In this document: piece after piece, positions 5,182 to 64,000 of the stretch
Layout: each line of letters starts with the position of its first letter
Numbering within the stretch: position 1 is the first letter of the stretch
Assembly: GCA_903813345.2 (NCBI GenBank)
Contig: CAIIXF020000006.1
Location: 12,714,348 to 12,778,347 of the forward strand
Direction of reading: 5' to 3'
Length of the DNA stretch: 64,000 nucleotides
From: Owenia fusiformis
Lineage: Eukaryota > Annelida > Polychaeta > Sabellida > Oweniidae
Notes under the pieces: generated by a model
What the model saw: only the letters and a program-made list of their open reading frames with translations
The model's database searches: none
What the model was told of the DNA's origin: nothing
Program-made: the position numbers and the translations under genes

Positions 5182-6800
5182 ACATCAGAATATGATATGC
5201 CATATACACCAAATATCACTATATTTTAGTTGTATATTACATAAACACAGGTCTAGTGACTGTCGATATAAGTAAACTGTAAAAGGTAAATGGCACATTT
5301 GAAGCAGATTAAACAACAAATAGAAATACATAAACAATTGAATGTCTTTTGAAGAATGATATCGAATTTAACTAATCAAAATATAAGTACAGGTGAAACA
5401 ACTTACACCATCAGTATGTACACATGAATGGTGACCCAAGAATTTGTCCCCCTCCCCCCCCCCCACCAAAATAGATTGAGAATAAATAAACATACTTTAT
5501 TATCCATGATATGGACTACTTATTTTACATAACTGTTATTCACTCAATGCATGACCATTTTTGAGATATTCATCACCTTTGAATGATATCAAGACATTAT
5601 TGATTAGTTATATCATGGGCTTTCAACAGAACGCCCATGGTTGTATCCATTTCCGCGTCTCCAAGAACTCCGCTTCATTAGCACTGTTAAATTGGATAAT
5701 GATTTGATATTATTTGGATAATGATTTGATATTATTATTCTATAAATCGATCGCTGGCATATCGAAGTCCGTAAAGAATGTAGTGAAGCCATCCGACTGT
5801 TAATCGATTTAAAAACATTTTACTTTAGAGTATATCACAATTATTGTATCATTTATCTTATCCGCATTTCAGAAATTTCAAATGTCTACCCATGGTCTAC
5901 CTAATGCGAGAATTCCCAACAATCAAGAGATGGCTATATCTGAAATATATATCTGGCTGAAATATTATATTCCCGGGATTATATTTTGGCATTTTCCAAG
6001 ATTCCTGAATAATTTGTTCTTTGGGATTTCATCTTCACTCGCTCCGGTCTTAACTGCGTTCATCCGACCGGCGGGAGCCGAGTGAACGAAGATGTTTCGA
6101 TTTGCTATGTACAGTACTAAGATACTAATTATTTGCATATAAATATTGGTCAATATTCTCATAAATTGGCACACAATGTCTTTGTGCTCTATTCCATTGA
6201 GATTAATCAGTAAATTGTCCAAATGTTGATCACAATCCCTCTGAGAAGCTTTATGAATTAAGCGCTTGTTATGTATATAGTTGGTGTGATTATATATTTG
6301 AAGCTACCTGAAACTTTATAAAAATGTTTTTTTAACCAACTGATTTTTGTAAAGCCAAAAAATCCCTATTTCATACGTCGAGTGATATGATATTTATTCA
6401 CATATAATAACCGCAGAATAACCAGGATTTTCTTTTTTTGAAAGAAGAACAGAATCCGGACCCTTGTGTTAAAAGAATAAGGGAGGAACTGTTTTCTTTG
6501 CCATCTCTCGAACAGTTTTGAACATTGTGGAGTTAACGACCAGAAATATGTAAAGTCTAAAGAAAGAAACAATGCCTTCCTATTTATTCAAGGCAATGCT
6601 ACAGTTGGAATGAATATCATGATTATATGAATTAACACCTTTAGCACTCGCTATAAACAATTTGGCATATTATATAACAAATCTATAATAGAACATGCCT
6701 CCAATTTAGACTCACATTGACGACGATTGGGCTGACATTCTGTAGTCTGTTCCATCATCAAATCTTAAGTAGACTCACAGGTACAAACAAGACATCGAAG

Positions 6801-13668: not shown

Positions 13669-13977
13669 AATGCAGAATTTAATAGCATTCATTGCTCACC
13701 TGTACACGTGAGAATGTTTCAAACATTTCTCATTAAAGTCATTTTTTGAAATAAATTCAGATAAAACTGTTAAGCCCTATATCTTAATCAACATTCCTTC
13801 TCATCAATGTCACACCATAAAGCAGTCGCAGAGGCCTTGACAGAGTTTGGGGAGGGGCACCGTCTGTTGGGCTCCTGGTCTAATTCGATCTCAAATCAAG
13901 AAACTCATGTGTCGTGCCCTCGATGATTCATCCCAGGCCATATACGGATCCTTAATCATAACCAAAATACAACCAAC

Positions 13978-20868: not shown

Positions 20869-21221
20869 GCCTTCTCAACTAGAACTAAAACCCCTAGAAC
20901 AGGCCCTGCAAGGTGGTAATGATTGAGAATTTTTTATTTTACTGCGGGAACTTACATGCGGCTCAATGTTGTAACGCCCTATTACCTAAAGGACGTTAAC
21001 ATAACTGATAAATGAGATCCATTGAAGACGTTAGTTTTTATCCATGTTCAAATGCACGCACAAGGTGACATTGGAATGTATCTCTCGAATTTCACCAGCA
21101 AACGATTCACGTGTGCAACCCATGAGAAAATGCTTATTGTTGCGCTAGCAGAAAACTGAAAAGTGCTAGCAGAAAACTGAAAAGTACTAAGCAAGACGGA
21201 CTTTTCAATACGTACAACACC

Positions 21222-37180: not shown

Positions 37181-37229
37181 ATGGATATAAAGATCTGTGT
37201 CGCACTTTTTACTTTATATTTAACAGCGG
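37181..37229 (+). other. Receptor A exon 1: signal peptide
   Basis: ATG at 37181 opens MDIKICVALFTLYLTAV, a short hydrophobic leader with Lys near the start. It splices in phase 1 directly to CTLD1. The paralogue has MELKICICFFIALIIYSA at the same place, which supports this start. Confidence 0.85.
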
Positions 37230-40200
37230 GTAAGTAATATATTTTTAACATCACTTTTTGTATTTGATATAGTTCACAGATATTGGAAAGTTAAACTAAA
37301 TCATCTGATTCTAATTACAGCAATTAAAACTGATAGAAATATTTTCAGTTCATGCACAATGCCCATCTGGTTGGAAAAGTCTGGCTGGGAAATGTATCTT
37401 TATTGATGACACCCAATCAACATGGCCAAATGCCGAACAGGCTTGTATCTCCAAAGGCGGTAGCCTTTTACAGGTTGCTGATAAAGGCTTAAAGGTGAAC
37501 CTTTTTTGTCGAACATGATCTCATGGAATCTTGTCATTTATTTGTATGTCGCTTGAACTCTCAAAAAGTTTCACCATTCGATTTTTAGCGACTTTTCTTA
37601 AAAAATGATGTTTCATTGACTTTTTTTTAAAAAAAGGTACAAGACTGTACATGGCATGTAATTTAGACGTTTTGTATGCAATTGTATTTTAATTTATCAT
37701 ATACTCGATTACACAAAAAACAAAATGCAAACATACGTATAGTTTTACATTATAATAACATAATAGTTTCATTTTAAAATTCTATAACATATAGTCTCAT
37801 CTTCATCAATTTTATGAATCGTCCAACAGGATGCCATTAATTCAGAGCTACCAAAGAGATCCAAGACAGGATTTTGGTGGACAGGTTTAACAAAATCTAC
37901 AAATACAAAATGTGAGCCTAACTGGAGGTGGAATGATGACCCAAACAGTGATATCAGTAACGTGTAAGTTATTGAATTGTAAATCCCACATAGGCACATG
38001 TAGTAACACAAAATAATGAACTGTAGTTATTTTAAAGAATTCGTGCAGTTGTAACAAAGAATACTGCATTATTTTTTATTGTTTTTAAAGAATTAAATGG
38101 ACACTTTGCAAGCTATTCAAAACCAGTGTGACACAAAACAAAAGACGATTAGCAGTTGATAGTTTCCATCATTTAAAAAATATACAGGGTGGTCAAAAAA
38201 TGGAAACCCTGCATTTTCTTCATATCTTCGTCATTTTGGGTGATTATTCCCTGAAATTCGACACACATGTACAACATTCAATTTCCCACCAGCTAACCAT
38301 ATTTCATGACCATCAGATTGATAGTCACAATGGTACAGCACTTTGAACAAGATGCCCCAGTGTGGCCACCATCGCGCTATTGGCAAATCTGAACAGATTG
38401 TCAATGATCTGACGAAATTTTTCAGCAGGTATGGCCTGAATGACAGGGATGATCTGCTTTTGAGGTTTGCAGTTGTCCTGGGGTTATTCTCGTACACTCT
38501 TATTTGGTGTATCACCACAGGTTGAAGTTAGGTAGGGACATTTTGGATGATAGGTGCAGGTTTGCCGAAAGTGCAATTTTGGCCAATGGAGCATGTTGTT
38601 TAAAGTGCTGTAACATTGTGACTATCAATTTGATGGTCATGAAATATGGTAGGCCGGTAGGAAATTAAATGATGTACAAATGTGCTAAATATCAGGGAGT
38701 AATTTCCTAAAATGACAAAGATATGAGGAAAATGGCGACAGGATTTCCATTTTTTACCACCTTGTACATGTACTCTTATTTTGTAACTGTGCATTCTTGA
38801 CAGTGTGAAAATATGGTTTTAGAAAATGGTTAAAGGAGCCAAATAACATGAATGGTCAGGAACATTGTATTGAGATTCTCAAGAACGGACTCTCCAACGA
38901 TGATAACTGTATGAATAGGAGGGGATATATCTGCAAATTTGTTTCCTCAACAAGTAAGTTAATTCTCCTTATCTTCGAGAATATAATGCATCTACTATAT
39001 CTTCACCGCATGGCCCGATAATGTCTTTGTTTTTGTTTTGCACCTTCCCCTTGTGTACAGAACATTTGCGTAAGTTAACTGATAAACATCTTGTTTTACA
39101 AAATGAATGTATTGTATAGAATATATGGTTGGCGTTGTTCAAGATTGAAATGTTTCAAATGAACTGTATAAAAAGCCATTGTTATAGATGCTTATAATTC
39201 GTTAAGATTCGTTCTTATGGTCGATTGTAATTTTTTATCTGTGCTTCTAAAAATTAAACCCCTTTTGGCTTTACCTTTTGACACTTCTGCTTCTCAGGTA
39301 TAACACTAAAGAGTGTTGGAAACAAAAAAACGAACAAATCATATCTAAAAACTGTTTTTCCAAAAATAGTTCCCCTTCCTTTTAGCTAAATGTGACCACG
39401 ATTGGGTACGAGGAGGTCCCAACTGCTACTATATCAGCACGCGGAGTGATACAACCAGGACAGATTGGAATACTGCAAGGTCACTTTGCCAAAAGGCTAA
39501 ACAAGGTGCCGATCTTATGTGGATTGACAATCCTGCAGAAGCGGTAAGATCTAGTTGGAACAGTAGTACCAGAGAAACTGTTCGATTTATTTGGTGGAGA
39601 GTGGAATTATTCTGGGTATTCTTGGTGAAAGCTTTGAGATGCTGTTTCTCTATTTTTAGATGTTGAATCATAAATCATTTAATTTAATCATAAAATACAG
39701 TTTAAAATGATTTCTACAATTCCTCCACATTATACAATATTATCAACTTTACTTTTAAACTGTACCTACATTACTCCAACAATGAAACCTCAGTTACTGT
39801 ATAACACATCACATCTGATGCGCATTCAATTTCTGCGTCTTGGGGAAACACCTGTTCATAACCGATTGGAAAAAGGAAAACAACACGAGATAATCACAAT
39901 GAAAATATTTCCAGACATGGCTGAAAGATTTGATTACCAAGCTATGGACCATCCGTGGCTCTGGCAACAGTAGAGGATGGTGGATAGGGGCCAATGATCT
40001 CCCAAATGGCGATAAAGGACCATACAAGTGGAATGATGGACAGCAATCTGTGGAAAACCCGGAGAAGTATTTGTAAGTCCAAATAAGACACACACATAAG
40101 AGCACTTTGAAGACATGAAAAACAGCGACCATTAATTCATAGTACTATTTAAATGAAGTGTCACGTGACCAGTAGGTTCTTGTCGAAATTGAGTAGACTA

Positions 40201-43200
40201 TTTGTATTAACAGGGAGTGGGACCAAGAACCTACCAATGCTGCAGGTAGCACTAATTTCTGTGGAGTCATGGACGGTGGGGTTTTCTATGATGGAGATTG
40301 TAAGGGCTGGCACAGATTCATTTGTCAAGGTAAATCAAAGTAACATTAACCATAAAACTCACTCATCGTTTAAAGTATTTAATCAAAATATGCTTAATAC
40401 CAGTATTTTAGTTGTAATACAAAATAGTTCACATCCAAATAAGAATATGCTGTCCTTTTAACACATTGACATGTTTGTAATATTTTCAAGGTAATGGTCA
40501 AAACTGCCCAGACGGCTGGGAAAGTGGTGTTAAGCAATGTTTCTTCTTTGGGAATGAGTGGAAACGGTGGAACGCTGCAAGAGTCCAATGCCAACAGACA
40601 ACCTTTAACAGCCAACCAGCTGAACTTGTATCCATCACTTCTCCTGAAATACTGGTAGGTCACATGTCATATTGTCATTCGATTCAAATAATCTTACTTA
40701 TATATGGAATAAATATTTATCAAAAAGTAGCCTCGTCGAGGAGTGGTTAATTTTAAAGGATAGCAAAACAGTGGCGCGGGAAAGGAGAGCGATGATTCAC
40801 AAAAGAAAAAGTATATTGATGATGTTTTTGCAGACATTTATCACTCAGAAGATGAAAGAAAAGAACCTCGGGTGGGTGTGGACCGGACTTAATGATAGAG
40901 ACCAGGGTGAAAGATGCAGCCCATTCACATGGGCGGACAGTACAAAACCTGCTCCCGGAATAGTGTAAATATAATCTAATTTCACGTCGAAATTCAGCTC
41001 CCTCAGAATATAATTTACCCCTAAGATATTGTTTGATCCCTCAGTAAATTGATAAAAGTTTCAGATCAGAAATCTTGAGGCATGCAACCCAAAGCAAAAA
41101 GATGACAATACCATACTAAAACATTGCAGTTACATGACAAGATGTCTTTAGATTATTGCCAATTGATATAAAAAGTACACATGCCTATCGCCAGTCATAA
41201 AAAGGGACTTTTTGGTGATGACATAATAAGGGAATATATTTTCTAGCACGTGGGCTACAGAACCTAACAGCTTTGGTGGAGTAGAACATTGTGGAGAAAT
41301 CCTCAGAAATGGTGTCTTCAATGACGCTAACTGTGCAGCAAAGAAGCCTTATATTTGCGAGGCACCTCTTCCGGCTCAAAGTAAGAGAATGCCTTAAATT
41401 GTTCGAACGCCCAGTTTTATCATCTCAGTAAAATTGTTCATTTACTAATCAAAATTCTAAACTAAATACGTTTGACGTAAACGTAATATAGATTAGAATT
41501 CATTAATCCAAATGCAGGACTTTTATATAAAATAGTGTCGATTTGATAAACGCTCTCTTGTTATACTATTAGGGAAGAAGAGGCAATCCACCGCATGTCC
41601 TGATGGTTGGTTAGCTGGTGCAGGGAGATGTTTCAAGTTTACAAGGGGTGGCATTAGGAGTTGGGACGCTCAGAGTCAGTGTCGATCATGGGGCTCCGAT
41701 CTCCTCAATGTTGTTTCATCAGACGTAAAGGTAGGGAAACAAGACGTTTATGGTTTAACTCTGTGTAAAGTCTTTGGGGATTCTATTGTGTCATAGATCA
41801 TTTGTACGAAGAAAAAATTTAAGTGAAAGCCTCAGTCACATTTGCTCTACGACTGGCGTACGGCGGCCGTAGCTTCACAAAATTGATATAAAAAAATGCT
41901 GCATATTTCTCTCGAATTTGGGAAGGTACGACCGCCGTATGGTTGCCGTGGCTCAAATGTGACTGAAGCATCGCTGCTAACACATGTGTTTAACGCTGGA
42001 CTATTTGTATGTATGAAGACACCTCAATGAAAGTCAGAAGAAGTACTTTCGGATCCAATTTCACATGTGTGATTTGTATTTCAGACTACCGTTGAGGATC
42101 TTGTACAGAAGAACCCTGGTAACTGGTGGACAGGGTTAAAGAGAGATGCCAAACCATCATGTACATCCAAGTGGAGATGGCTTGATGAGTACACATCTGA
42201 TACAAAGTTCATGTGCGTATATAATGTTAGTCCTGTCTCAGAAGGCAAAATTGAAAATATTCTAGTGTAGATAATTATAAAGAAACGTGTATCTGCATTA
42301 CAGGTGTTGTATTACATGAACTGATTGGGCGTGTCATCAAATCAACTGAATTGTAGAGACATCTTCACTTTGAGACAATGATTTTATCGACATTGAAACC
42401 TAAAATCTGAACTAATCTGAATATGTTTAATTGTTTAATTCTTTAGCACATGGGAAAAGGAGCCAAACAATCTGAAGGGAGAGGAGCACTGTGGTGAAAT
42501 CTGGAAAGATGGCGTGTTTAATGATGCTAGTTGCACCGCAAAGAGGGGTTACATTTGCAAATATGAAATGATACCTGGTAAGAGTAATCACTGGCTTATA
42601 TAACTTTACTTTTATGTGTGTTGTTCGAGTTCTTAATTGGATGGACCTCCGGATCCACCTTTCTCGTCAACTGTGGGTCGCTGCCATTATTGTAATTAAT
42701 CGTACAGAAGTTTTGCCTTGATTAATTATAGGAACGTCTGCATGTGCGCCAGAATTCTTTAACTTCGGGCAAAGCTGTTATTTCTTTAGTACACGCAGCT
42801 TAAACAGTATGATGACATGGGCGGACGCCAGGGCAGATTGTGACAAAAGACAAGGTGGTTCTGATCTTGTCTGGATCACATCCAGAAGTGAATATGTGAG
42901 TTCAGGTCATTATTACAATATGTAAGTCACGTGGGAATATACATAGAGTTTCATCAAACGGCACCAGATTTTTGTTTTTAGAGTTGAATAGTAATGTAAT
43001 CCCAAAAAGATATTTGCAGATATTTTTTTCATAACTTTGTCCAATATCCATAACTGTATTTTAATGATTACTGTTCAAACTTGAGTATTTCACTTTGTAT
43101 CTAGGGTTTCCTGGCCGAGTCTGTGAAATCCATTTCACTTATATTACCAAATAAACTGGGTTGGTGGACTGGGCTAAACAACGGACCAAATGATAATGCT

Positions 43201-46200
43201 GTGAACTGGAAGTGGAACGACCAAACCCAGTTGGCAGATACGACGATCTTGTATGTATTTAAAACAATACTTAGTTGATGTAATTGATAGACATTGTCAG
43301 AATAACACAAGGGCAATATTCAATTATTTCTCAAACTAAACACATTTAGAAACCCTACGAATTAATAGAATTAGAAATGAAAGGCTAAGTCTAATTGCAT
43401 CAATTCTGACAATATTTTTAAATGAACATGCCTCCCATTCTTAAATTGTAAACAAATATGTCCAAACATTTGGATTTCAGTATATTATATTGCGCTTCAT
43501 ATTATTGTCTATGTGTTTCAGAACTTGGGACACAGAACCTAATAATTTCAACGGCAACCAACTTTGTGCAACTATGCGTGACATTGGGGCCATATATAGG
43601 GCAAGGGATTGCTCTTCCAAACAACGTTTTATCTGCCAAAGTAAGTTCATGTCGTTTTTATATGATCTAAAGTCTCCGTTTGAAACTGCACTTCACACCA
43701 ACAAATAACATTTCACAGATAATGATTTAATTTACTAGTAAATGATAATAAACATCTAGATTTACTACTTAAAGAAATTCGTGCCAAAATTTTAAAATTG
43801 GGGCCCAGATATTTTTTTAGAATTTTGGCCTCCCTCCCTTTTGATTTCCAGGACCGCCCTTATTGCTAAATGGATATAGTCGATGTTTAATATATATTCT
43901 AGACCTACATTGTTATCGCTTCAAAAAATGAATGAACTCGAAATTAATCTATAACCCAAAAATCTGTTCAACGTGTCATTAACGTCAATCAAACCTACGT
44001 CTCCAAATAGTTCCAGGAACTTCTTCATGTCCATCCAGCTACTCCTACGATTCAAAGAGTAACTCGTGTTACTACATAGAGAAATCAACTAGACTTGAGT
44101 GGGCTAAAGCTAGAACACAGTGCCAGTCACAGGGGGCTGATCTCGTTGCTATTAACAACGACAATACTAAGGTACCTAGTCATTGTAACAGGATAAATAC
44201 AAAGGAACACATACCCTGATGTCCCTGGGCAAATGTTATTTTGATCTTACCTTTAAACTAAATTCAACAAACTTTATTTTATTAGTACTTCCCCCTTCCT
44301 AAAGTTTCGCATTGACCCTTTCTGATCAGATTTTCTCCTGTTTCAGAATTTCGTTGAACAAACCCTCTCAGCGGATCAGTCGTACAAACTCTACTGGGTA
44401 GGGTTGAACGACGCCGATCAGAAATCCAGGTGTAACCCTTGGGAATGGAGAGATGGAACTCGACTTAATCCAATGTTCATGTAAGTATCAACTGACCACG
44501 ATGATAGATTCTTTCTTTAAAAATGCTTAAAATGACTTGTAGGCACCATATCATATAAAGTATGACGTCCCGAAATCCACGACTCGTGAGCGAATTTTCA
44601 ACTTTTTAAACGAAATAAATTCGCTTAATGACACTTAAAGTAATTACATGACTCAGAAATCATGTAGCTATAACCGTATGATTTATATATTGATATTAGT
44701 AAATGGAATCAGGAGCCGAACAACTTTGATGGGAATGAGCACTGCGTGACCATGCTGCAAAATGGTGTTATGAATGATGGCAATTGCGACAGACAGGAGG
44801 CATACATATGCAGATATGACCTTCCTGCAAGCGTCTCATCCCCAGGTATTGTCACAACGCAGTTTGACATTTTCTATAAACTTGATATGATAGATTGCAC
44901 AGTACACATTTCTATGGGTCTTTAGCAGAAGAAGGCACAAACAGTAGCATCTTAAATATACAAGATCAGACTCCAGTAACCAAACTGACGAACCTAAAAA
45001 TCAATTTCGTTATTTGATAAATTCCAGCAACATACGATGTGAGTGGTACAAATGGTAAATGTTTGATTCTGACCAACTGGAGGTACAGGGACACAGACCC
45101 GAAGAGATACAGTTGGTGGTGGGAGGATTGTAAAGACACAGCTAGGGCGCTATGCGAAATGCCCAACCCAGGAAGTAAGTATATTGCTCTTCAGTCAAAA
45201 ACATGGTTCTATAAGTTTTGCATCAATATTACTTGTTTTAAGTTTCCTAGGTTCTGCCCATCTTTTAACAACTACCATATGTTTCACTGCATATACCTAT
45301 AGTCTAACTATGAGTAATCTTACAGCGAAAATGGTACTCACCTAGAACGTAATTGTTCAGAAAGTAAAAAATATGACTTCTCTTCTGCCTACAGCTTGTC
45401 CATCTGACTTTACAATCCAAGTAGACTCAAGTTGTTACAAAATCCGTGGTGGTGCCTGGACAACCCACGCTGATAACACTGCCTGGTGTAAGGCACAGAA
45501 CCCAGCTGCTGATCTAGCAACCATTGACAACATGGCAGAGGCCCAGAAACTAGGCCCACTATTGTTTGATGCAGGAGCAACTGGTTTCACTGAGTTCTCC
45601 ATTAAAAAATGGAATGGTAATGAATACATTTAATACTTACTTTATTTTGTTATAATATGTTATACTATACTTTAATATTACGGTATAGTACCAAGGACGT
45701 CTAGATAGTACCCATTATCAGGTGAAAGCTTTCCATAGCTTATAACTCATGCTGTCACCTAACCTTGAGTGTTGCATTTCCAATAGGCATCACAGCTTGC
45801 AACCAAGTAGATGGTAACTGGAGGAAGCGTGGCAACTCCTGCTATATGTTCTCTAATAGGAATCGTGATGGTAAATCATACAAAGATGCTAGAGCTGAAT
45901 GTCAGAAACAGACAGGTGGAGACCTGGCTACCTTTAGAAATGCTGATGAAGCGGTATGTCCGTTACATAAGTGTAATACTATAGTATTCCACAATCGTGC
46001 TTTTATCAATGTATCCTATGTCCTTGTATATCTAGGAAATGCTATCTTTATCACTTCACAAAAGAGATCGTGTGTTCGTTAAAATAATTTTCAGTAAAAC
46101 GAGTAAATGAAATGTAACTTAACATATTGGCTGTCATAGCAATTTATTATTTATTACAGGAATGGTTACGAGAAATAGTTGGTATTCTATGGAAAATCAC

Positions 46201-48046
46201 AGGTAGTACCCCCACATCTATGACCTACAGAGTGGGACTAGATGACCTTGATATTCAGGGAACATGGAAGTGGATAGATGGAACTACATTCAGAGAGGAC
46301 TTAGTGTGAGTTGTTATTCTTATAGAGATTATTATTCTTTTATGATAAAACAACAGAATGTTATTACATATGAAACAACACAACTTAAAATATGGTATAA
46401 CAATCATTCGCACCCTCAATATTATAAATTACATATATTTTTGATTCATTACCTTATTCATAATACTATTAATATTGGAATTTGTTTTAGTCAATGGGAG
46501 AAATCGCCGAATGATTGGGATGACAGAAGTAGTTGCAACTTCATCTACAAGGACGGCACCTATCACACTGTCCAGTGTGGGGCCCAGTGGCTTACGGGAT
46601 ATATATGTCAGAAAACAGTTGGAGGAAGTAAGTATAATTTTGATTTATCAAACAGATGTTCAGCAACAAAACGGCCTCAACTTGATAAAGCCCCTCAGAG
46701 TTTCCCATAAAAGAATGACTAAATACGAAATTTGCAAGTGGTTCTAGGAAATGTCAGTCTTGCAAAGAGGCCAAATGATTGCATTTGACCAATGCTAAAA
46801 CATCACGTATGAGTCTTGTTTTGTTTTAATAAAACAATCACCATCTAAATCTTCTAGCCGGTGGACCAACAACAAGCTGTCCGTTTGGTTGGCGTGAGAG
46901 GGATGGGAAGTGTTATTTATTCAGCTCCAAAGCCTCCTCAGCACGACTAAACTGGGATGATGCCAGGAAATCCTGTCAGAATATGATGGCTGGTGGTGAG
47001 CTCATGTCCGTTGAGAACCAGGATGAATCGGTAAGACCTTTCGGACCTTTCTCTGCATGACATCATACTACAAGCGTTTGCGTATATACTATATCACCAT
47101 GCCAATCGGGCTTATATAATAAGATCAGGTATATATGAACGTGGAATTACCGAAGTTTGTGTGTTTATTTAAGGAATATATACGTGATGTCACTGGGCTT
47201 ATTTGGATAAATGACCCTAAATGGCCTGGGTGGTGGACAGGGCTCAATGATCTCCCCAATGGTGACAAAGGACCTTGGAAATGGACCGATGGAAGTGAAT
47301 ATAAAGACAGTCTAATGTAAGTGGTGATAGCCTTCCTTTTTGATTTTGTTTTACTACAATCCATACCATTTATCGTAATTGAATTATCGTGTACTATCAA
47401 ATGTTACAGAACTATAACCTTACTTGAACATTGTTTCAGAGAATGGGTTCGCCATCCCGAAGTGTTCGGTAACCCCGAGTGCACAGCTGTTGACACCCAA
47501 GGAATGTATTATGCCTTTGATTGTACCTCAAGGCGGTCATCTATCTGTATTACAGGGACTGGCTCAGGAGGTCCTCAAAGTATGTTATATATTTGAAAGA
47601 GAATTGATTGTAACATTACAGAAGCAAATCAGATTTCACGATACTCGTGACTAACATAGTTAAATTGGTCACTTGGACCCTCAAGCAGTTTTAAATTCTG
47701 AAAGTCTTATTATGCAATAATTTCTTAGTTGCCTCATAAGTATTATTTTTTCTAAATAAGAATTCCCAAGGACAATATCCCATAAACAAAAAATTAGTCG
47801 CTCATAAATCATGTGAACCATTGTAAATGACACTTTAACAGTTTTAACTTCATTCTAACTTCAGCCTCGGGTCTGTCTGCAACAACGCCAGGGCAAAAAG
47901 CAGGAATAGCGATAGGTGTAATTGTGCTTGTAGCCTTGCTGGCTGTTCTAGCATTGGTTGTCTATAAAATGAGGACTGGCCCTAGACCACCAAAGGCCAC
48001 AGGGGGCATCGCTAACATTCTATATGGAAAAGAGGGAGATGCTTAA
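37181..48046 (+). CDS. Multi-CTLD type I membrane receptor A (mannose-receptor-like), complete
   Basis: Twenty-eight exons join in phase to 1352 residues plus TAA. Exon 1 (37181-37229) encodes the signal peptide MDIKICVALFTLYLTA. Exons 2-19 encode CTLD1-6, exons 20-21 a permuted CTLD module, exons 22-27 CTLD7-8, and exon 28 the membrane helix and tail. Each CTLD is built from three exons with the fixed phase pattern 1-0-2-1, so whole domains are exchangeable units. Unlike vertebrate mannose receptors there is no cysteine-rich or fibronectin II domain before CTLD1. CTLD1, 3, 4 and 6 keep the residues for a mannose-type calcium site. The likely role is surface binding and uptake of glycoconjugates or microbes. 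No stop or frameshift interrupts it. The relation to MRC1 or PLA2R1 is by architecture only, and orthology is not claimed. Confidence 0.92.
37349..38953 (+). other. Receptor A CTLD1 (sugar-binding type)
   Basis: Exons 37349-37494, 37830-37963 and 38823-38953, residues about 17-153. CPSGWKSLAGKCIF opens the domain; GFWWTGL is the core WIGL-type strand. EPNNMNGQEHC followed by SNDDNC supplies the EPN, acidic and ND positions of calcium site 2 with mannose-type specificity. It closes with RRGYICKF. The intron before the third exon holds a mariner-like element. Confidence 0.9.
38183..38767. mobile_element. Mariner-like nonautonomous TIR element in receptor A intron 3
   Basis: TACAGGGTGGTCAAAAAATG at the left pairs with CATTTTTTACCACCTTGTA at the right, and the pairing continues over more than 100 bases (CATATCTTCGTCATTTTGGG with TAAAATGACAAAGATATGAG). 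TA flanks both ends. No transposase. Confidence 0.8.
39386..40329 (+). other. Receptor A CTLD2 (calcium site degraded)
   Basis: Exons 39386-39543, 39915-40072, 40214-40329. CDHDWVRGGPNCYYIS, GWWIGANDLPNGDKGP, then EPTNAAGSTNFC and FYDGDC. Asn of EPN is replaced by Thr and the acidic and ND positions are lost, so calcium-dependent sugar binding is unlikely. Confidence 0.9.
40491..41380 (+). other. Receptor A CTLD3 (sugar-binding type)
   Basis: Exons 40491-40654, 40834-40964, 41247-41380. CPDGWESGVKQCFFF, GWVWTGLNDRDQGERC, EPNSFGGVEHC and FNDANC. Full set of site-2 residues. The linker after it carries the RKKR site. Confidence 0.9.
41573..42577 (+). other. Receptor A CTLD4 (sugar-binding type) with basic site at its start
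   Basis: Exons 41573-41730, 42085-42212, 42447-42577. Starts RKKRQSTACPDGWLAGAG; RKKR is residues 441-444. NWWTGLKRD, EPNNLKGEEHC and FNDASC give a complete mannose-type site. Confidence 0.9.
41829..41971. repeat. GGTCACATTTGCTC-type foldback element (member 3)
   Basis: GCCTCAGTCACATTTGCTCT and CGGCGGCCGT at the left pair with ACGACCGCCGTA and GCTCAAATGTGACTGAAGC at the right. It lies in the intron between the first two exons of CTLD4. Confidence 0.7.
42732..43640 (+). other. Receptor A CTLD5 (EPN kept, other ligands lost)
   Basis: Exons 42732-42895, 43105-43250, 43522-43640. CAPEFFNFGQSCYFFS, GWWTGLNNGPNDNAVNW, EPNNFNGNQLC, and YRARDC where an ND pair would be. The EPN alone is not expected to hold calcium tightly. 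Confidence 0.9.
44017..44845 (+). other. Receptor A CTLD6 (sugar-binding type)
   Basis: Exons 44017-44171, 44347-44480, 44700-44845. CPSSYSYDSKSNSCYYIE, YWVGLNDADQKSRCNPWEW, EPNNFDGNEHC and MNDGNC: complete site-2 residues. Confidence 0.9.
45028..45616 (+). other. Receptor A permuted CTLD module: C-half exon 20 then N-half exon 21
   Basis: Exon 20 (45028-45174) reads like the last third of a CTLD: GKCLILTNWRYRDTDP, WWWEDC, ALCEMP, with three cysteines but no EPN. Exon 21 (45395-45616) reads like the first part of a CTLD: TCPSDFTIQVDSSCYKI, AWCKAQNPAADLATIDN, FSIKKWNG, with three cysteines. Both exons are bounded by phase-1 introns. Together they hold the six cysteines of one long-form CTLD in reversed half order; the usual middle exon is absent. 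The paralogue has the same arrangement, so both halves are probably functional. Confidence 0.75.
45787..46627 (+). other. Receptor A CTLD7 (non-canonical)
   Basis: Exons 45787-45953, 46160-46305, 46491-46627. GNWRKRGNSCYMFS, YRVGLDD, GTWKWIDG, SPNDWDDRSSC, YHTVQC, GYICQK. SPN replaces EPN and the ND is lost. Confidence 0.9.
46858..47579 (+). other. Receptor A CTLD8 (non-canonical)
   Basis: Exons 46858-47030, 47174-47316, 47440-47579. CPFGWRERDGKCYLFS, GWWTGLNDLPNGDKGPWKW, HPEVFGNPEC, YYAFDC, SSICIT. No EPN. The LPNGDKGP segment matches CTLD2. Confidence 0.9.
47865..48046 (+). other. Receptor A exon 28: transmembrane helix and cytoplasmic tail
   Basis: A Thr/Ser-rich stalk is followed by a 22-residue hydrophobic helix starting AGIAIGVIVLVALLAVL, then the stop-transfer residues KMR and a 26-residue tail with PRPPKATGG and ANILYGKEGDA. 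The NxLY pattern resembles the tyrosine uptake signal of the mannose receptor tail (FENTLY, from memory). Stop TAA 48044-48046. Confidence 0.9.
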
Positions 48047-48481: not shown

Positions 48482-48914
48482 ACAAAATGACGGAACGTCG
48501 AATGTACGATTTTCTTTTTTCCTTATTTCACGCGGTGTAGGCGGAATCCCCACGACGTTTTTTCTCACAAACGTATATCAGTATCATATGTTTCAGAAAA
48601 TGAACATGTTTGCGAAAAAATAGCTCAGAAGACAGCAGAATCGTCGATTTAATTCCTCACTTAAGTTACATAAACGGTTTGGGTTAAAAGTGCAGATCTT
48701 AACTGTTTTTCAAAATACCGTTTGTGTTACTTAAGTGAGGAATTAAATCGACGATTATGTTGTCTTCTGAACTATTTGTTCGCAAATATGTGCATTTTCT
48801 TAAACATATGCTACTGATACACGTTTGTGATAAAAAATAATGTGGGAAATCTGCCTACAACGTGTGAAATAAGGAAAAAAGAAAAATCGTACCTTCGATG
48901 TTCCGACATTTTAT
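48482..48914. repeat. Long foldback, arms about 200 bases
   Basis: ACAAAATGACGGAACGTCGA, AATCGTCGATTTAATTCCTC and ACTTAAGTTACATAAACGGT on the left pair with ACCGTTTGTGTTACTTAAGT, GAGGAATTAAATCGACGATT and TTCGATGTTCCGACATTTTA on the right. Unequal divergence between arms suggests an old insertion. Confidence 0.8.
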
Positions 48915-50656: not shown

Positions 50657-53600
50657 ATGGAATTAAAGATCTGCATCTGTTTTTTTATTGCATTAATCAT
50701 ATATTCGGGTGAGTAAATTCATTATATTTGGCACAAATGCAAGACAACAACGCACGTTTCGCTTTATTGAAGGCAATGCTGTGATATACAGGGTGTTTCA
50801 TAATGACCGTCCCCCCATCAACCACCAATCCTGAATAGCATACCCCCATGTGTTATATATCATATGAACGCTTAGTCAATTCTGGACTTATTGAATCAAC
50901 TTTGATTAAGCTTAACATTTTTTACAACTTGATACATATCTCTATAAAAGGTACCCATTTTAGCTTTAGCATAGAATCTGAAATAGTCAAAGAAATGCCC
51001 AGAGAGCTCTAAATAATACAATGGATAATATAGCGATCTGCTTTTCTCTTTAAATCCATCAGGAATAGTAGCCACAAATAATCATGCAAATTGAGGGGAT
51101 AGTGGCTACAAAATATAAGTTCACAAATTATGTTCTCAAAGACCAGGCATTCTAATATTTGGCACATAAGTCCAGAATTGAATACGCTTTATTATGGTAT
51201 ATAGATTATGGGGGCATGTGAAGTAGGATTGCCTGTGGATGGGGGGACGGTCATTATGAAACACCCTGTATATATCGACGACGTTCATATCATTGACCAT
51301 TATGCAATTAACTAGGACCTGATAGGATTTGATAGGACCTCCTACCCTTTTACACCTGCATGGAATAATGTAGTCAACGAGTGTTAGATTTGTTGTTTAT
51401 GTACAGGGGCGTAGCCAGCAATTCTTAAGAGAGGACGATTTTTGGGTTTGCATCACTGCGAGCGAAGCGATCCCCAAAAAGGGGTACACCCGGAAATTTT
51501 ACAACATTATATACATGTATGGTGCTTTCAAAGCATTCCAAACTATAATTTATCAATGTGTTTTTCAACAAATTTTCTTTTCTTTTTTCTTTTTTGAGGG
51601 GGTGGGGGAGGGTGCGATCGGCCATAATGTATAATCATATATATTCACCGGCATTTTATAAATCGACCAAATCTACTTTAAAGCTCAAGGGCAATGCCCA
51701 GGTGGTTGGAAAAGTCTAGCAGGAAAATGCGTCCTGTTTGATGACACGAGGTCAACGTGGCCAAACGCTGAGAGTTCTTGCATATCTAAGGGAGGCAGTC
51801 TGCTGCATGTTAAAGACATGAATATGAAGGTGAGAAGATCCCTAAAGTAAGCATAATATCTGTGATTCAGTATTAACTTGAGGAAATGTCCAAAGACATA
51901 AAAATTAGCAATATACTAACCATTTTATAGACTGTGGTATTTTATAATGCAGAATGCTATTGCTCAAGAATTGTCAACACGGCCCGTTGGTTTCTGGTGG
52001 ACGGGACTTCATAAGTCAACCAGCGTCCAGTGCCAACCGAAATGGAGATGGAATGACGACCCTAACATGGCAACCAACATGTAAGATTATACAAACTAAT
52101 GCAGATATGCACTCTCAAGAATATACGTCGTGTGTTTGCCAAAATTAAGGTCAGGGTCACATGTTATTTTTCGAATTTGAATCACTCCTTCCCCAAAGTG
52201 TCTACATCTCTCACTTTTGCACAGCGAGTGCACTAATGTACCTAGAAAAGAATGTAAAGAAGAATGTTTTGTTAAAATGTATAAAAAACAAGAAAATTCA
52301 GTGAAAAAATCTGAAAATTTTCAGAAATTTTTTTCACTGAATTTTCTCGTTTTTTATACATTTTACAAAACAAATCTTCTCACCAGTCTTTTCTAGGCAC
52401 ATAAGTGCACCTTTTGCGCAAAACTGGAAGATGTAGACAATGTGTGGAAGGAGTGATTCCTGTTTGAAAAATAACATGTGACTCAATTGAGGAATGCAGA
52501 AAAATTCCAAACATGCACCCTGGCCTTAACTGTCATTTAAATATTTAATTAATAAGCACATTCATGTGGTTTTCATTTTAGAAATTGGATAAAAGAGCCA
52601 AATAACATGAATGGTGTCGAACATTGTGTTGAGATTCTAAAGAATGGTCTATCTAATGATGACAACTGTGCAGCAAGAAGAGGCTACATCTGCAAATTGT
52701 CAAATGGCGCATGTACGATTAAATATAATAAAAAGATATGTTTATTCCTAATAAAGCGAAGTCAGAAAATAATCAAATTATAGTGAATAATATATTTTTT
52801 GAAAAATATTGTTTTTAGAAGTCAAAATGAACGACGCCTGAATGTGTAGCCATATATTCATTCGTTGTTTTGTAATATAATTCCAGCACAATGTGACCAT
52901 GATTGGGTTCAAGGGGGTCCAAACTGTTACTATATCAGTACTAGGAGTGACACAACGAAGACAGACTGGAACACTGCCAGATCTTTGTGTCAGCAATCTA
53001 AATCTGGGGCTGATCTTATGTGGATTGACTCTCCTGCAGAAGCGGTAAATTGAAAAACTAAAAAGTTAATATTTAACCTTGACAATGCGTTGAGTATTCA
53101 GAATTGTATTCATTACAATGCATTTATAAGTCCCCCTCCCCTATAAACATTTGCATAAAAATATTATTATCATGATGTTGTTATAGTTGTTTTGTTATGG
53201 TTACTATTCATTTTTAATGCTAGGCATGGTTGAAAGATCGGATAACCAAGCTTTGGACAATACGTGGAGCAGCAGGAAGCAGGGGTTGGTGGATTGGGGC
53301 TAATGATCTACCGAATGGTGATAAAGGACCATACATGTGGAATGATGGTCAGCAGTCGCAAGATGATCCAGAAATATATTTGTACGTTGAATGCAATCAT
53401 TGTCTTAAAAGAGAAGAGAAGCAAAGGGGCGATAAAGTGGATATATATTTAAGAATATAATTGGACTTCAATTTTAAAATTGGACACACGTCAGAATTCC
53501 GATTTTGCCTCGCTTGCAAAGAACATGTCAAAATTTAAGTTCCGGTGAATTTCTCTTCATATAATGCCTAATATGGAGTTTAATGAAAGATATTCAGTCT

Positions 53601-59600: not shown

Positions 59601-62600
59601 TAGAAATTCCACTTTTATGTACATGTCATATACTATAATAGTTCGTAAGCCAACTAATGAAACGGAATACAATATTTAAGTCCGAGGCCTTGACAAGTAA
59701 GATTTGGTAGAACTGATAGAAGGCATTGAATAGAAATTCCATTTTTATGTACATGGCATATATATAATGCTGCCATTTTAACAGTACCAAACACTGCCAC
59801 GTGTCCACCAACCTACCAATTTGACTCGGGAAGTAATGCATGTTACTACATTGAGACAAATACCAAGATGACGTGGGCTGAGGCGAGAATGTTCTGTCAG
59901 CAATCATCGCAAGGTGCAGGTGCTGATCTCCTGACTATCAAGGATGTGGCTACCAAGGTATATACCTATAAGCCGAATAAGCCCTTTTTAAAGTTTTTTT
60001 TGTTTTCCGCGCTTGACTCAGGGGATTGTGGTATCCACAGCAATAACCATCTTTTCACAAGTATAAAGCGTTGGTCTTTTCCCTATTAAATTGTCAAGCG
60101 TGTGCTTATGCGTGTGTTCCAGACCTATATAGAACAAACCCTTGCTATCGGTGCAACCTACACGGTATACTGGACCGGACTGAATGACCTTGATCAAAAA
60201 TCAAGATGCCATCCTTGGAAATGGAGGGACGGGTCAAAGGCTAATCTTGATAACGTGTACGTACCAGATACAATGATTGCATCTTTCTTGTTTGCTGTAA
60301 AGACAATTTAGAATATAGAAATGCAAATCGCATTTTATTTATTATGTTCAAATATCAATGTGTGATCTTAAAAAACAAAGTTACAGAGAATTTTTCCAAA
60401 ACATCTGGATCGCATATATATATTATAACTATAAATCTCTGTCCACATCTTTTTGTAGCAAGTGGAATAAAGAGCCAAACAATTTTGATGGGAATGAACA
60501 CTGTGCGAATATGCTACAAAATGGCGTCATGAATGATGGTAGCTGCACCGGCAAAAATGCGTACATCTGCAGATATGAACTTGCTTGTATGAGTACCATC
60601 AATATTAAAAGTTTTTTTCTTAACTGTGATCATATTTTTCTAGACTTAGCTACTCCTGAAACAATGATATCAGCCAAACGGACGTTCCAAAATTCATGAG
60701 TAAAAATCCATAAAGGAAATATCCACAATCATGTAGTCATGGAGATTATTCATATACAATGTGCTTTAAGTGCGTTTGAAGAAACGTATGAAGGATACAC
60801 ATTCGAATATCATTCATCCGTATGAATTACGTATAATATCAATGTCGAATTATTTCAGCTTCATTCGATGTTAGTGGTACGAATGGGAAGTGCTTAATAC
60901 TGACAAACTATAATTCAAGGGACACAGATCCCAGCAAATACAGTTGGTGGTGGGAGGCTTGCAGTGATAAAGCTAGGCCCTTGTGCGAGATGCCCAACCC
61001 CGGAGGTACGTGCGCTATATAGTACTACTTATGGTGTCGACAATTTTTGCTTTATTATATAAAACTGATCTACAGAGTCCTAGGTATAACCAAAATAAAT
61101 TGGACTGAATTTACCCTAATTCCATCGAATTTATAGTTATACAAAACGATTTCGTAATATATATATATATATGATCGTAAGTCTTATGGTATTTTGTCTT
61201 GTTAAAGTGTGCCCACCTGGTTTCACAATCCAACTTGACAACAGTTGCTATGCTATCGGTACCGAGTGGAATGACCACGATACGAATGCTGCGTGGTGCA
61301 AGGCACAGAACCCATCAGCTGATCTAGCAACCATTGACAATGACTCTGAGGCATTTAGACTAGGTCCAAAACTCGTGGCGGCTGGTGTGACTGGCTTTGG
61401 GGAATTCTCTATAAAGAAATGGAATGGTACAACTTATCTCGTATTTTGTTCGATCTTTCTAAAACATATTCACGATGCATTGCAATTGATTACAATTATC
61501 GCACATTTATGTGTTTCTAAAAAGCAGTATTTAAAATAATTCCTATGAACCAAATACAATTGTGTGCAAATATGTAAACAGAAGCAACAAAAAGAAAGAC
61601 CAAACTGTATTATAAAAAATTGTATTATAAAATAATTATGAACTTTCATCGAAAGGTCCATCGAGAAACCACAGCTACAGGATATTACATACACTCCCCT
61701 CCATAAGTTTATCAACCTTAGCTAAGGTTGCCAAACTTATGGAGGGGAGTGTACATTCACGTGGAAGTCATTACAGTACATAGTATTGAAGAACATAACG
61801 ATTTCCAAAAATGTATCCCTTTTTGTCCGTTAGGATCATTAATTTGGGATAAATCGAATTGGTTTCCTTATCAAAGGATAATTTCTGTCTGAGTTCTTCA
61901 CAATTTTTTACCTTTAGCCTTTTTTCGATAAATACACTGCGCTCCTCTTCCAGGTATAACGGCTTGCAACCAGGCTGGTTGGGGCTGGAGGAAACGTGGC
62001 AACTCCTGCTATAAGTTCTCTGGTAGGGGAGGCGATGATGGTAAATCATACAATGAGGCAAGGACTGAATGTCAACAAGCTGGTGGTGATTTAGTGACAT
62101 TTAGGAACGCTGATGAGGCGGTACGTTTGACCTGTTTGTGTTTGATACTTTAAAATAATGTATAACATAACTTCAGTTTATGTTTATGATAATTATTGTT
62201 GAAGATCATACTTGTCTGTCTGTGCAGGATGTACGATAACAGTGTTTAAGATCGCATGTGTTTATTTCTAGTAATCTAAGATCACATTTGCCTATTCTTT
62301 GTGGAACAGCTATTTGTGTGTTTTTCTCTCTGCAACAATTGTATCCTTCGTTCAATACATTTTGGTGTAAACTTATTCTTTATTTTTCTAACAAGGAATA
62401 CATCAGACAAATGGTTGGACTATTGTGGAAGACGACGGGTGGATGGCGCAACTTTATGGTAGGGTTAGATGACAACTCCGGTAGTTGGCAGTGGGTAGAT
62501 GGCACTAAATACAAACCAGAATACATGTAAATATCCAACAATAAAAATACATTTCCTGTAATCATATTAATTTAGTACTCGGAAAGGTTAACTCATAATA

Positions 62601-64000
62601 CTCCTACTATTGCCTAACAAGAATACGATGATAATTATACTTTATCACAAGTAATAACATTTTTATATCTTATCAAAATTGCACTTGTACAATTATGTCC
62701 GCAGTGCAAAAGCCTAGTACAATATATGTCTGCAGTGCAAAAGCCTAGTAGCTAAGACAATAGAACTCCATTATCACTCCAAGTATATGAATGGATAACA
62801 TTTAAAGTCAATCGGTTAAATAGTCGGTCAGTTATCAGCTCACCCTCTTAAATATTAGGATAGTTTCTAAATAGCAGAAAAACAAAGAATTCTAGTGCTG
62901 CCAGCTTTTATTCAGCTTTTTATTTGGGCTACACTGCCATTCACTTACATATTAAAATCTTGGAATAGTGGCTTAATTTCATAATTTATCAAAAGTGTTA
63001 GTTGAATCTGTGTAAAACTTAAATGATACACCTTGTGATGACCCTGTTAATGTACATGTTGTGATTAAACATGCAAATGTTGGTTGAAAAAATCCAAGAT
63101 CCAAAATCCAAGAATCTTGGCATTGCATCAATGGAGATTTGGCCCAAGTTTTTTTTAAATGTCATGGAAAATGATTCAAATGATATAACTGTTTAAATCA
63201 AAGCTATTATAGGAGAAAACATTTCATTGAATTCAAATATGCAATTTAAAAGAAGGAGAGGTGTGTTATTAGAGGTCTAATATGCAAATCTCTTAAAATC
63301 TCACGAAAACGAGATTTAGCGAGATCTTAAAGCCTATATGGAAATTGTACTATTTGGAATATTTCCTTACAAATCTTACTCTGAATATCTCTGAATGAAA
63401 ATGTAAAAGTCAATCATTGTGAGAGCAAATGGACCGATCAAAAAACGGGGGGAGGCAATCCTATGAAAGGATACGAAACATTACACTATGTCAATAAAAT
63501 GATATATTTAGAAATGATGCAAATAAAACAATTTCAGTGTTTGGGAAGAAGACCCCAATGACTGGGATGATATAAGTGTATGTACTTGGATCTTCAAGAA
63601 TGGTGCATACCACACGAGCAGTTGTAATGCAAATTGGTTGACTGGATACATTTGCCAAAAAACTGTTGGTGGAAGTAAGTATTCGTCACTATGGTGAAGA
63701 TAAAACGTTGAAGTATGAACATCTAATTCATTATATTAAATATAGGAAAGTATGTATCATCGTACTAAAGCAAAAGTGCAGAGAAGGAAATACACACGAA
63801 ACGCAACATGAAAAAAGATCATCTATTAAGAATACTTTACTTGTAGCTGGGGGACCAACCTCGAGTTGTCCATTTGGTTGGCGTGAGAGAGATGGTTATT
63901 GTTATATGTTTGGTCCAAAGGACCCGGATTCTAGACTTAGCTGGGATGACTCCAGGACAGCTTGCCAAGCACAGATGACAGGTGCAGACCTCCTCTCTAT
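50657..64000 (+). CDS. Multi-CTLD membrane receptor B, tandem paralogue of A (3' end off window)
   Basis: Twenty-five exons are seen with the same order and phases as gene A, giving 1185 residues before the window ends inside exon 25. Exon 1 is 50657-50708 (MELKICICFFIALIIYS, signal peptide). CTLD1-6, the permuted module, CTLD7 and the first part of CTLD8 follow; the membrane helix should lie beyond 64000. The pattern of kept and lost calcium-site residues in CTLD1-7 is the same as in A, and the RKKR site is conserved at residues 441-444. No stop or frameshift is seen. Introns are on average longer than in A and hold several TIR elements. Presumed to be a cell-surface lectin like A. Confidence 0.92.
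50787..51270. mobile_element. Mariner-like nonautonomous element in receptor B intron 1
   Basis: TACAGGGTGTTTCATAATGA followed by CCGTCCCCCCAT at the left is exactly mirrored by ATGGGGGGACGG then TCATTATGAAACACCCTGTA at the right, with TA on both sides. About 480 bases, no transposase. Confidence 0.85.
51684..53780 (+). other. Receptor B CTLD1 and CTLD2
   Basis: CTLD1 exons 51684-51829, 51953-52080, 52582-52712: CPGGWKSLAGKCVLF, GFWWTGL, EPNNMNGVEHC, SNDDNC (complete mannose-type site). CTLD2 exons 52887-53044, 53224-53381, 53665-53780: CDHDWVQGGPNCYYIS, GWWIGANDLPNGDKGP, EPTNAEGSTALC, FFDEDC (site lost, as in gene A). Confidence 0.9.
52145..52530. repeat. Foldback element in receptor B intron 3
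   Basis: TTAAGGTCAGGGT and, inside it, AAATTCAGTGAAAAAATCTG pair with AATTTTTTTCACTGAATTTT and CACCCTGGCCTTAA. Interior words such as TAGAAAAG and GTGCAC also pair. Confidence 0.7.
54607..54745 (+). repeat. Minisatellite with TTAAGGTAGTTGT core
   Basis: About six variants of TTAAGGTAGTTGTCACTCTT, each followed by TTGT in the fuller units, of irregular length, in receptor B intron 8. Confidence 0.8.
56140..56280. repeat. Foldback element in receptor B intron 11
   Basis: GAATGAAATAAAATGTCTTT and CCGAACCTTGTTGACAAAAT pair with GTTTTGTTCCAATGAGGTTC and GGAAAGATGTTTCATTTCAC around a centre near 56208. Confidence 0.75.
57453..58566. mobile_element. 1.1-kb TIR element in receptor B intron 14
   Basis: TAGCCCGGACAGAATTGTTC and TAGGGTCACTTTTTCTTTAA at the left pair with TTAAAGAAAAAGTGACCCTT and GAACAATTCTGTCCGGGCTA at the right; the pairing runs on for about 160 bases (TTAATTTATTGATAT with ATATCAATAAATTAA). 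The interior shows no transposase frame. Confidence 0.85.
58711..58883. mobile_element. Small element with pogo-like ends
   Basis: TATAGTAAAACCCGTCTTGG at the left and CACAGGTTTTACTGTATA at the right form short TIRs; CAGTnnAACC ends are typical of pogo/Tigger-type elements. It ends about 20 bases before exon 15 of receptor B. Confidence 0.5.
59529..59763 (+). repeat. Tandem duplication of about 105-bp units in receptor B intron 16
   Basis: TAATGAAACGGAA-A/T-ACAATAT, then CGAGGCCTT, AACAAGTAAG or GACAAGTAAG, and GTAGAACTGATAG occur twice (starting 59529 and 59656), each ending in TTTTATGTACATG. Confidence 0.8.
60859..61426 (+). other. Receptor B permuted CTLD module
   Basis: Exon 20 (60859-61005): SSFDVSGTNGKCLIL, YSWWWEACSDKARPLCEMP. 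Exon 21 (61208-61426): VCPPGFTIQLDNSCYAI, AWCKAQNPSADLATIDN, FSIKKWNG. Same C-half then N-half order, phases and cysteine pattern as in gene A. Confidence 0.75.
61688..61755. repeat. Compact perfect-arm hairpin in receptor B intron 21
   Basis: ACACTCCCCTCCATAAGTTT, then a short centre with ACCTTAGCTAAGGT, then AAACTTATGGAGGGGAGTGT. About 20 paired bases plus an inner palindrome. Confidence 0.85.
61954..64000 (+). other. Receptor B CTLD7 and start of CTLD8
   Basis: CTLD7 exons 61954-62120, 62396-62526, 63538-63674: GWRKRGNSCYKFS, FMVGLDD, GSWQWVDG, DPNDWDDISVC, YHTSSC, GYICQK (site lost, DPN instead of EPN). CTLD8 begins with exon 63847-64000 (CPFGWRERDGYCYMF) and is cut by the window end. 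The 1-kb intron 62527-63537 holds only a short direct repeat, GCAGTGCAAAAGCCTAGTA at about 62702 and 62732. Confidence 0.9.

What the first reader, a model, noticed from the sequence alone, without database searches (positions are those of the whole stretch)
45028..45616. Permuted CTLD: C-terminal half encoded before N-terminal half in receptor A
Between complete CTLD6 and CTLD7, exon 20 encodes only the C-terminal part of a CTLD (three cysteines, ending ALCEMP) and exon 21 encodes only an N-terminal part (three cysteines, ending FSIKKWNG). Put together they contain exactly the six cysteines of a long-form CTLD, in reversed half order, and lack the usual middle exon. It could be a circularly permuted domain or two half-domains that pair with neighbours. 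I know of no mannose-receptor family member described this way.
Basis: partly seen in the sequence, partly recalled or inferred. Interest (0 to 1): 0.75.

Follow-up and report, generated by a model that had tools for sequence, protein, structure and literature searches.

The report
A lectin domain with swapped halves
Two neighbouring animal receptor genes each contain one C-type-lectin domain whose second half is encoded before its first half, probably a naturally rearranged (circularly permuted) domain kept by selection since an old gene duplication.

Summary
In gene A (28 exons, introns all GT-AG, one open frame of 1354 residues), exon 20 (45028-45174) and exon 21 (45395-45616) lie between complete CTLD6 and CTLD7. 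Exon 21 is clearly the N-terminal half of a C-type lectin-like domain (CTLD). Exon 20 fits a C-terminal half, but on weaker evidence.

The main new finding is a paralogue, gene B (50657 to past 64000). It has the same reversed order at the same place: exon 20' 60859-61005, exon 21' 61208-61426. Synonymous change is large (dS 1.47) and the introns examined do not align, yet dN/dS over both exons is 0.14. This argues strongly against misassembly and decay.

Joined 21 to 20, the halves resemble one short CTLD with the cut in the loop between strands beta2 and beta3 (weak E-values). The 20/21 intron sits where introns normally separate whole CTLDs. All other CTLDs of gene A are complete.

Best reading: a circularly permuted CTLD. 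Co-folding is inferred: a model of the joined exons could not be run, and exon 20 alone gave no usable structure. The listings of ten literature searches showed no described permuted CTLD.

The parts
45028..45174 (+). Gene A exon 20, phase 1-1: probable C-terminal half of a CTLD (C2, C3, C4; beta3-beta4-beta5), 48 full codons
45175..45394 (+). Intron 20/21, phase 1, at the position where introns normally separate whole CTLDs; not alignable with B
45395..45616 (+). Gene A exon 21, phase 1-1: N-terminal half of a CTLD (C0, C0', C1; hairpin, alpha1, alpha2, beta2), 73 full codons
60859..61005 (+). Gene B exon 20' (C-terminal half), 77% identical in protein to exon 20
61208..61426 (+). Gene B exon 21' (N-terminal half), 69% identical in protein to exon 21
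44011..44845 (+). Complete CTLD6 of gene A (exons 17-19: N, M, C)
45787..46627 (+). Complete CTLD7 of gene A (exons 22-24)
37181..48046 (+). Gene A: signal peptide, CTLD1-6, permuted CTLD, CTLD7-8, transmembrane segment (by eye), short tail; 28 exons, 1354 aa
50657..64000 (+). Gene B: paralogue with the same layout as far as it goes, cut by the window end within CTLD8
59785..60586 (+). Complete CTLD6 of gene B
61954..63674 (+). Complete CTLD7 of gene B

Best explanation
Exons 20 and 21 encode one circularly permuted C-type lectin-like domain inside a multi-CTLD type I membrane receptor. The chain arrives from CTLD6 and first makes beta3-beta4-beta5. It crosses the former domain boundary by a short linker (EMPNPGT between C4 and C0) to the old N-terminal hairpin, then makes alpha1, alpha2 and beta2, and leaves directly into CTLD7. 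The C1 (exon 21) to C4 (exon 20) disulfide would staple the halves; C2-C3 lies within exon 20 and C0-C0' within exon 21. The new ends lie in the beta2-beta3 loop, so the usual ligand and calcium loop is replaced by the links to CTLD6 and CTLD7. The domain would hang upside down, is unlikely to be a classical sugar binder, and most likely acts as a fixed spacer or angle-setter.

Likely origin: in an array of CTLDs with phase-1 introns both between domains and in the beta2-beta3 loop, the exon pair [C half of one][N half of the next] is itself a frame-preserving unit. Copying that unit into an interdomain intron, or deleting the outer halves of a tandem pair, gives the permutation at once.

Shown: exon order, phases, conservation in A and B, selection, N-half identity of exon 21. 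Moderately supported: C-half identity of exon 20. Inferred: joint fold, disulfides, geometry, function, route of origin.
For: (1) The order C half then N half occurs at the same place in both paralogues, with dS 1.47, introns that align no better than shuffled ones, and dN/dS 0.14 over both exons; Fisher p = 7e-14 for synonymous versus nonsynonymous differences.
(2) Exon 21 matches the N-exon profile (23.1 bits, 0 of 3000 shuffles; hhalign 93.6% and 94.6% over the exon 21 part). Its AlphaFold2 model shows hairpin, alpha1, alpha2 and a late strand. Of 111 Foldseek matches 50 were listed, and all 50 are, by their titles or my recall of the entries, CTLD-fold structures, best E 0.014.
(3) Joined 21 to 20, gene A's best PDB match among 177635 sequences is a CTLD aligned across the junction, residues 24-123 (E 0.045). 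Gene B's second of two matches spans 2-117 (E 0.29). The two-sequence profile matches two CTLDs across the junction (E 0.18 and 0.6). In the order 20 to 21 no alignment spans both halves; instead one snaclec matches the two halves separately in exchanged positions, and a CLEC4A chain matches exon 20 with its C-terminal part (E 1.9 and 2.7). Exon 21 of A alone finds nothing and exon 20 alone finds no CTLD.
(4) Cysteine spacing of 21+20 is 11-17-53-22-7 (A) and 11-16-53-22-7 (B), against about 10-20-80-13-7 for six-Cys CTLDs of the same gene; C3-x7-C4 is shared with 13 of 15 ordinary CTLDs.
(5) The intron between the halves has the phase and place of interdomain introns.
Against: Exon 20 on its own is not recognised: no Pfam hit, hhalign against ordinary CTLDs 0.4%, shuffle test only about 1 in 100 (where 5 ordinary C exons left out of the profile score 20 to 59 bits), and a poor model (pLDDT 54) with no CTLD match. 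Pfam Lectin_C does not match the joined halves in either order. PDB E-values for the joined halves are weak (0.045 to 0.6); non-CTLD proteins are among the hits (1 of 2, 5 of 8). No control with exon 21 joined to a shuffled exon 20 was run against the PDB, and longer queries score higher in general. With the window's own CTLD profile the order 21 to 20 scores less than exon 21 alone, and in A and in B slightly less than the order 20 to 21. No model of the joined exons exists.
Confidence: 0.66

Rival explanations
1. The halves are CTLD halves but do not fold with each other in one chain: they swap with the halves of a second receptor molecule, making a covalent or interlocked dimer.
For: Each half has an odd number of cysteines. 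Mannose receptor CRD4 has been crystallised as a domain-swapped dimer exchanging residues 707-727 (PMC7949135, passages; that these are long-loop residues is recalled). CTLD1, 3, 4 and 6 carry a seventh cysteine that could also link chains.
Against: The stretch between C4 of exon 20 and C0 of exon 21 is about as short as most interdomain linkers of the same protein, so closing within the chain is the simplest solution; nothing in the sequence demands a dimer.
Confidence: 0.14
2. Two unrelated additions: exon 21 is a degenerate N half serving as an extension before CTLD7, and exon 20 is a cysteine-containing linker after CTLD6 that is not a CTLD C half.
For: Exon 20 alone is not recognised as CTLD by Pfam, hhalign, PDB search or Foldseek. 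CTLD6 has a spare seventh cysteine with which exon 20 might pair.
Against: The cysteine pattern ends with x7 between C3 and C4 as in 13 of 15 ordinary CTLDs, and exon 20 prefers the C-exon profile over N and M. Joined order gives CTLD matches across the junction that neither half gives alone. CTLD1, 3 and 4 have the same seventh cysteine without any extra exon next to them.
Confidence: 0.14
3. The arrangement is not in the mature message: one or both exons are skipped, or they are alternative cassettes for the C exon of CTLD6 and the N exon of CTLD7.
For: Both exons are symmetric 1-1, so skipping either or both keeps the frame. No transcript data were available.
Against: As replacements they would break the frame: ordinary C exons are 2-1 and N exons 1-0. 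Both exons are under purifying selection, and both keep GT-AG borders in two paralogues.
Confidence: 0.04
4. Misassembly or decaying remnants of a tandem CTLD pair.
For: C half followed by N half is what the inner edge of a damaged tandem pair would look like.
Against: The same order is present in paralogue B with dN/dS 0.14 and unalignable introns; no direct or tandem repeats were found around the exons.
Confidence: 0.02

Closest known systems
Mannose receptor family (MRC1, MRC2/Endo180, PLA2R1, LY75/DEC-205)
   Same: Type I membrane protein with a row of CTLDs; the best PDB matches of a profile of 13 ordinary CTLDs are the IgY receptor, PLA2R, LY75 and MRC1 chains (60 of 244 matches listed); short cytoplasmic tail
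   Different: No CysR or FNII domain found; 8 ordinary CTLDs plus one with reversed halves between CTLD6 and CTLD7
Long-form C-type lectin-like domain (Pfam Lectin_C)
   Same: Six cysteines at comparable places, a WIGL-like and W-N stretch, similar helix and strand order once the halves are exchanged
   Different: C half encoded first; beta2-beta3 loop replaced by the chain ends; no EPN or WND calcium motif; not detected by Pfam
Domain-swapped CRD4 of the mannose receptor (PDB 1egg, in PMC7949135) and segment-swapped collagen IV NC1 (outlier of the C-type lectin-like superfamily in PMC3779223)
   Same: Precedents for CTLD-fold elements exchanged between molecules or subdomains
   Different: There the exchange is in space, and to my knowledge the order along the chain is normal; here the gene order itself is permuted
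Naturally circularly permuted domains (examples in PMC3779223: PutA proline dehydrogenase, GlpX-like phosphatase)
   Same: Order of elements along the chain changed while the fold is expected to stay
   Different: Here the cut and the join coincide with phase-1 introns, and the domain is a CTLD

Membership tests
C-type lectin-like domain (long form) | N half: C0-C0' hairpin, alpha1 with C1, alpha2, beta2 | tested here: met
   Exon 21: 23.1 bits, 0 of 3000 shuffles; model topology and CTLD matches
C-type lectin-like domain (long form) | C half: C2-beta3-beta4-C3-beta5-C4 | tested here: inconclusive
   Spacing and alignment fit; 37 and 18 of 3000 shuffles as good; no stand-alone recognition
C-type lectin-like domain (long form) | N half precedes C half in the chain | tested here: not met
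   Reversed in A and in B
C-type lectin-like domain (long form) | Passes Pfam Lectin_C cut-off | tested here: not met
   No match in either order. Gene A has 8 matched stretches, only the best of which is placed; that they are the 8 ordinary CTLDs is inferred
Circularly permuted domain | Halves complementary, without gap or overlap, in exchanged order | tested here: inconclusive
   Cross-junction alignments appear only in the order 21 to 20, but E-values are 0.045 to 0.6 and exon 20 is not recognised alone
Circularly permuted domain | Folds to the same three-dimensional structure | not testable with these tools
Mannose receptor family | N-terminal CysR and FNII domains | tested here: not met
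   CTLD1 follows the signal peptide directly; Pfam finds only Lectin_C above cut-off in gene A
Mannose receptor family | 8 to 10 tandem CTLDs, one transmembrane segment, short tail | tested here: met
   8 Lectin_C stretches; hydrophobic segment, seen by eye, and short tail in the last exon

The most novel reading that the evidence does not exclude
A naturally circularly permuted C-type lectin-like domain, created by shuffling exons out of register in a CTLD array and kept by selection through a gene duplication, in which the ligand loop has become the entry and exit point of the chain.
Probability: 0.66. Interest if true: 0.75.

Novelty: new variant of a known kind. Interest (0 to 1): 0.64.

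Why it matters
CTLDs are among the commonest animal extracellular domains (recalled), and the searches made here showed no permuted form. If confirmed, this is a gene-level snapshot of how a domain becomes permuted: the old domain boundary survives as an intron between the halves and the new boundaries are introns too. It would also show that the CTLD fold tolerates new ends in its ligand loop, a point of interest for protein engineering, and that domain scans such as Pfam overlook such domains.

Tried and rejected
Whole-genome context: none is held. Related loci in prokaryote genomes and viral contigs: 56 and 113 pattern matches, none confirmed by tblastn. NCBIfam: no match for the joined halves of A and B. 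Rfam: no match in the window at gathering thresholds. Hidden exons in the three introns around exons 20 and 21 (182, 220 and 170 bases): no candidate in the pattern-based exon scan. Tandem or direct repeats around the exons: none reported (one 14-base inverted pair).

Half-domain trees do not settle which ordinary CTLD the permuted one came from. A21/B21 (100/99) and A20/B20 (100/100) form pairs on long stems (2.62 and 2.42 changes per column). A20/B20 fall among the CTLD2 C halves (94/96), while A21/B21 are unplaced; the tool warns of long branches meeting.

Cysteine parity (3 + 3) first looked like a strong argument for mutual pairing, but CTLD1, 3, 4 and 6 have 7 cysteines, so it is only suggestive. 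The AlphaFold2 model of exon 20 alone was too poor to use; its one Foldseek match is not a CTLD.

Subsets used: the CTLD profile A3 held 13 of the 15 complete ordinary CTLDs read here (B2 and B5 left out); the exon 21 model alignment held 13 of 15 N exons (B3 and B4 left out); and one search used all 15.

Full report
What is there. Gene A on the + strand starts at 37181 and ends at 48046. Twenty-eight exons with GT-AG introns join in one frame of 1354 residues: signal peptide, CTLD1-6, exons 20 and 21, CTLD7-8, a hydrophobic segment and a short tail. Each ordinary CTLD has three exons, N (phase 1 to 0), M (0 to 2) and C (2 to 1). Exons 20 and 21 are both 1 to 1. They therefore cannot replace a C exon or an N exon, but either could be skipped in frame. 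Pfam finds 8 Lectin_C stretches in the gene A protein and nothing else above cut-off; exons 20 and 21 do not match Lectin_C singly or joined.

The second copy. Gene B, from 50657 to beyond the window end, has the same layout as far as it goes. Between its CTLD6 and CTLD7 lie exon 20' (60859-61005) and exon 21' (61208-61426), again C half first. In the half-domain trees most A halves pair with the B half of the same position (N halves: 1, 2, 4, 5, 7 and exon 21; C halves: 1, 3, 4, 7 and exon 20), the rest being unresolved or with an extra row in the group. The two genes therefore look like copies of a whole gene.

Selection. Exons 20 and 20' are 77% and exons 21 and 21' 69% identical in protein. 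Together they give pS 0.645, pN 0.181, dS 1.47, dN 0.208 and dN/dS 0.14; Fisher p is 7e-14. The 21 ordinary exons present in both (CTLD1-7) together give pN 0.201, pS 0.778 and a saturated dS. In global alignments of 5 intron pairs, 4 are no more identical than shuffled controls to within 0.01, and the fifth (7N/7M) lies above the shuffled mean but below its maximum. The reversed order is therefore old and both exons are maintained as protein-coding.

What the halves are. Exon 21 scores 23.1 bits in A and in B against the N-exon profile, with 0 of 3000 shuffles as good; hhalign gives 93.6% over its part of the joined form. AlphaFold2 on exon 21 aligned with 14 other window exons gives mean pLDDT 69, with a hairpin, two helices and a strand near the end. 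Foldseek gives 111 matches, 50 listed; those 50 are C-type-lectin-fold structures by title or by my recall, best E 0.014, none under 0.001. Exon 20 is weaker: 4.4 and 6.5 bits against the C-exon profile, with 37 and 18 of 3000 shuffles as good; no hhalign match; model pLDDT 54 with two strands; no CTLD found by Foldseek. Leave-one-position-out controls with 5 ordinary C exons gave 20 to 59 bits and 0 of 1000 shuffles, so exon 20 is far more divergent than any of these.

Order matters. Joined in the order 21 then 20, the gene A domain has as its best PDB sequence match rhodocetin beta, a CTLD, over residues 24-123 (E 0.045); the only other match is not a CTLD. In the order 20 then 21 that match is gone. 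Of 3 matches the best is not a CTLD, one CTLD matches the two halves separately in exchanged positions, and one CTLD matches exon 20 with its C-terminal part. Gene B joined finds NKG2-A (first half only) and botrocetin beta over 2-117. The two-sequence profile in the order 21 to 20 finds 8 chains, 3 of them CTLDs and 2 of these across the junction. In the order 20 to 21 it finds 4 chains, 3 of them CTLDs, the best stretch of each within one half or just over its edge. Exon 21 of A alone finds none, and exon 20 (profile of A and B, and B alone) finds no CTLD. These E-values are individually weak, and no control with a shuffled exon 20 was run against the PDB. With the window's own CTLD profile the order 21 to 20 scores 19.2 (A) and 19.6 (B) bits, less than exon 21 alone (24.1 and 21.3) and than the order 20 to 21 (24.6 and 20.1).

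Where the cut lies. The joined order gives cysteine spacings 11-17-53-22-7 (A) and 11-16-53-22-7 (B). Exon 21 ends just after a TGFTEF...KKWN stretch that lines up with the WIGL strand and the following W-x-N-G stretch of a CTLD (motif name recalled). Exon 20 begins ten residues before C2. The cut thus falls in the beta2-beta3 loop. In DEC-205 these loops make about half of the interdomain contacts (PMC7948739, passages). [quoted passage not shown] Both facts make new ends at this place plausible.

Mechanism. I propose an intramolecular permuted CTLD held by a C1-C4 disulfide between exon 21 and exon 20, with C2-C3 inside exon 20 and C0-C0' inside exon 21 (pairing inferred from the known CTLD pattern, recalled). 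The sequence has no EPN or WND motif and no free ligand loop, so sugar binding of the classical kind is unlikely; a role as spacer or angle-setter between CTLD6 and CTLD7 is inference. The intron between the halves has the place and phase of an interdomain intron, which suggests that the pair was copied or left over from two neighbouring CTLDs.

Novelty. Ten searches of the open-access library showed no report of a circularly permuted CTLD in their listings; 'CTLD' with 'circular permut' returned 0 papers. Some listings were partial (15 of 66, 12 of 26), and the 12 papers were seen as a listing only. I read passages of PMC4444583, PMC12321717, PMC514892, PMC3779223, PMC7949135 and PMC7948739. 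Of these, PMC4444583 mentions permutation only in a reference title and PMC3779223 for other folds. Most subscription papers and all unpublished genome annotations are outside this search. The organism is not identified; an animal, probably a marine invertebrate, is a guess from gene structure and content.

Noticed in passing
window 41573-41586 and 55677-55690: A run of basic residues lies between CTLD3 and CTLD4 in both receptors (RKKRQ in A; KKRQ in B). It looks like a furin-type cleavage site (motif recalled), which would split the ectodomain into two parts.
   Followed up: no
CTLD1, 3, 4 and 6 of genes A and B (M exons): These four CTLDs carry a seventh cysteine in both genes, perhaps for bonds between domains or chains.
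   Followed up: partly
38212-38734, 48510-48885, 50784-51273, 52156-52482, 57434-58583, 61690-61753: Inverted-repeat elements (64 bases to about 1.1 kb from end to end, arms 76-94% complementary), 5 of the 6 inside introns of the receptor genes, look like small non-autonomous DNA transposons.
   Followed up: no
6678-7226, 13927-14184, 21126-21554: Three similar coding exons (GLDD..LDGNKYVCKLEP.W...) suggest a tandem gene family upstream, possibly CRAL-TRIO/tocopherol-transfer-like (recalled). Pfam gave no match for the 13927-14184 stretch or for the ORF 14235-14489 after it.
   Followed up: partly
2479-4572 +: A 698-residue open frame with a sub-threshold Pfam Chromo_2 match (20.7 bits, cut-off 25).
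   Followed up: no
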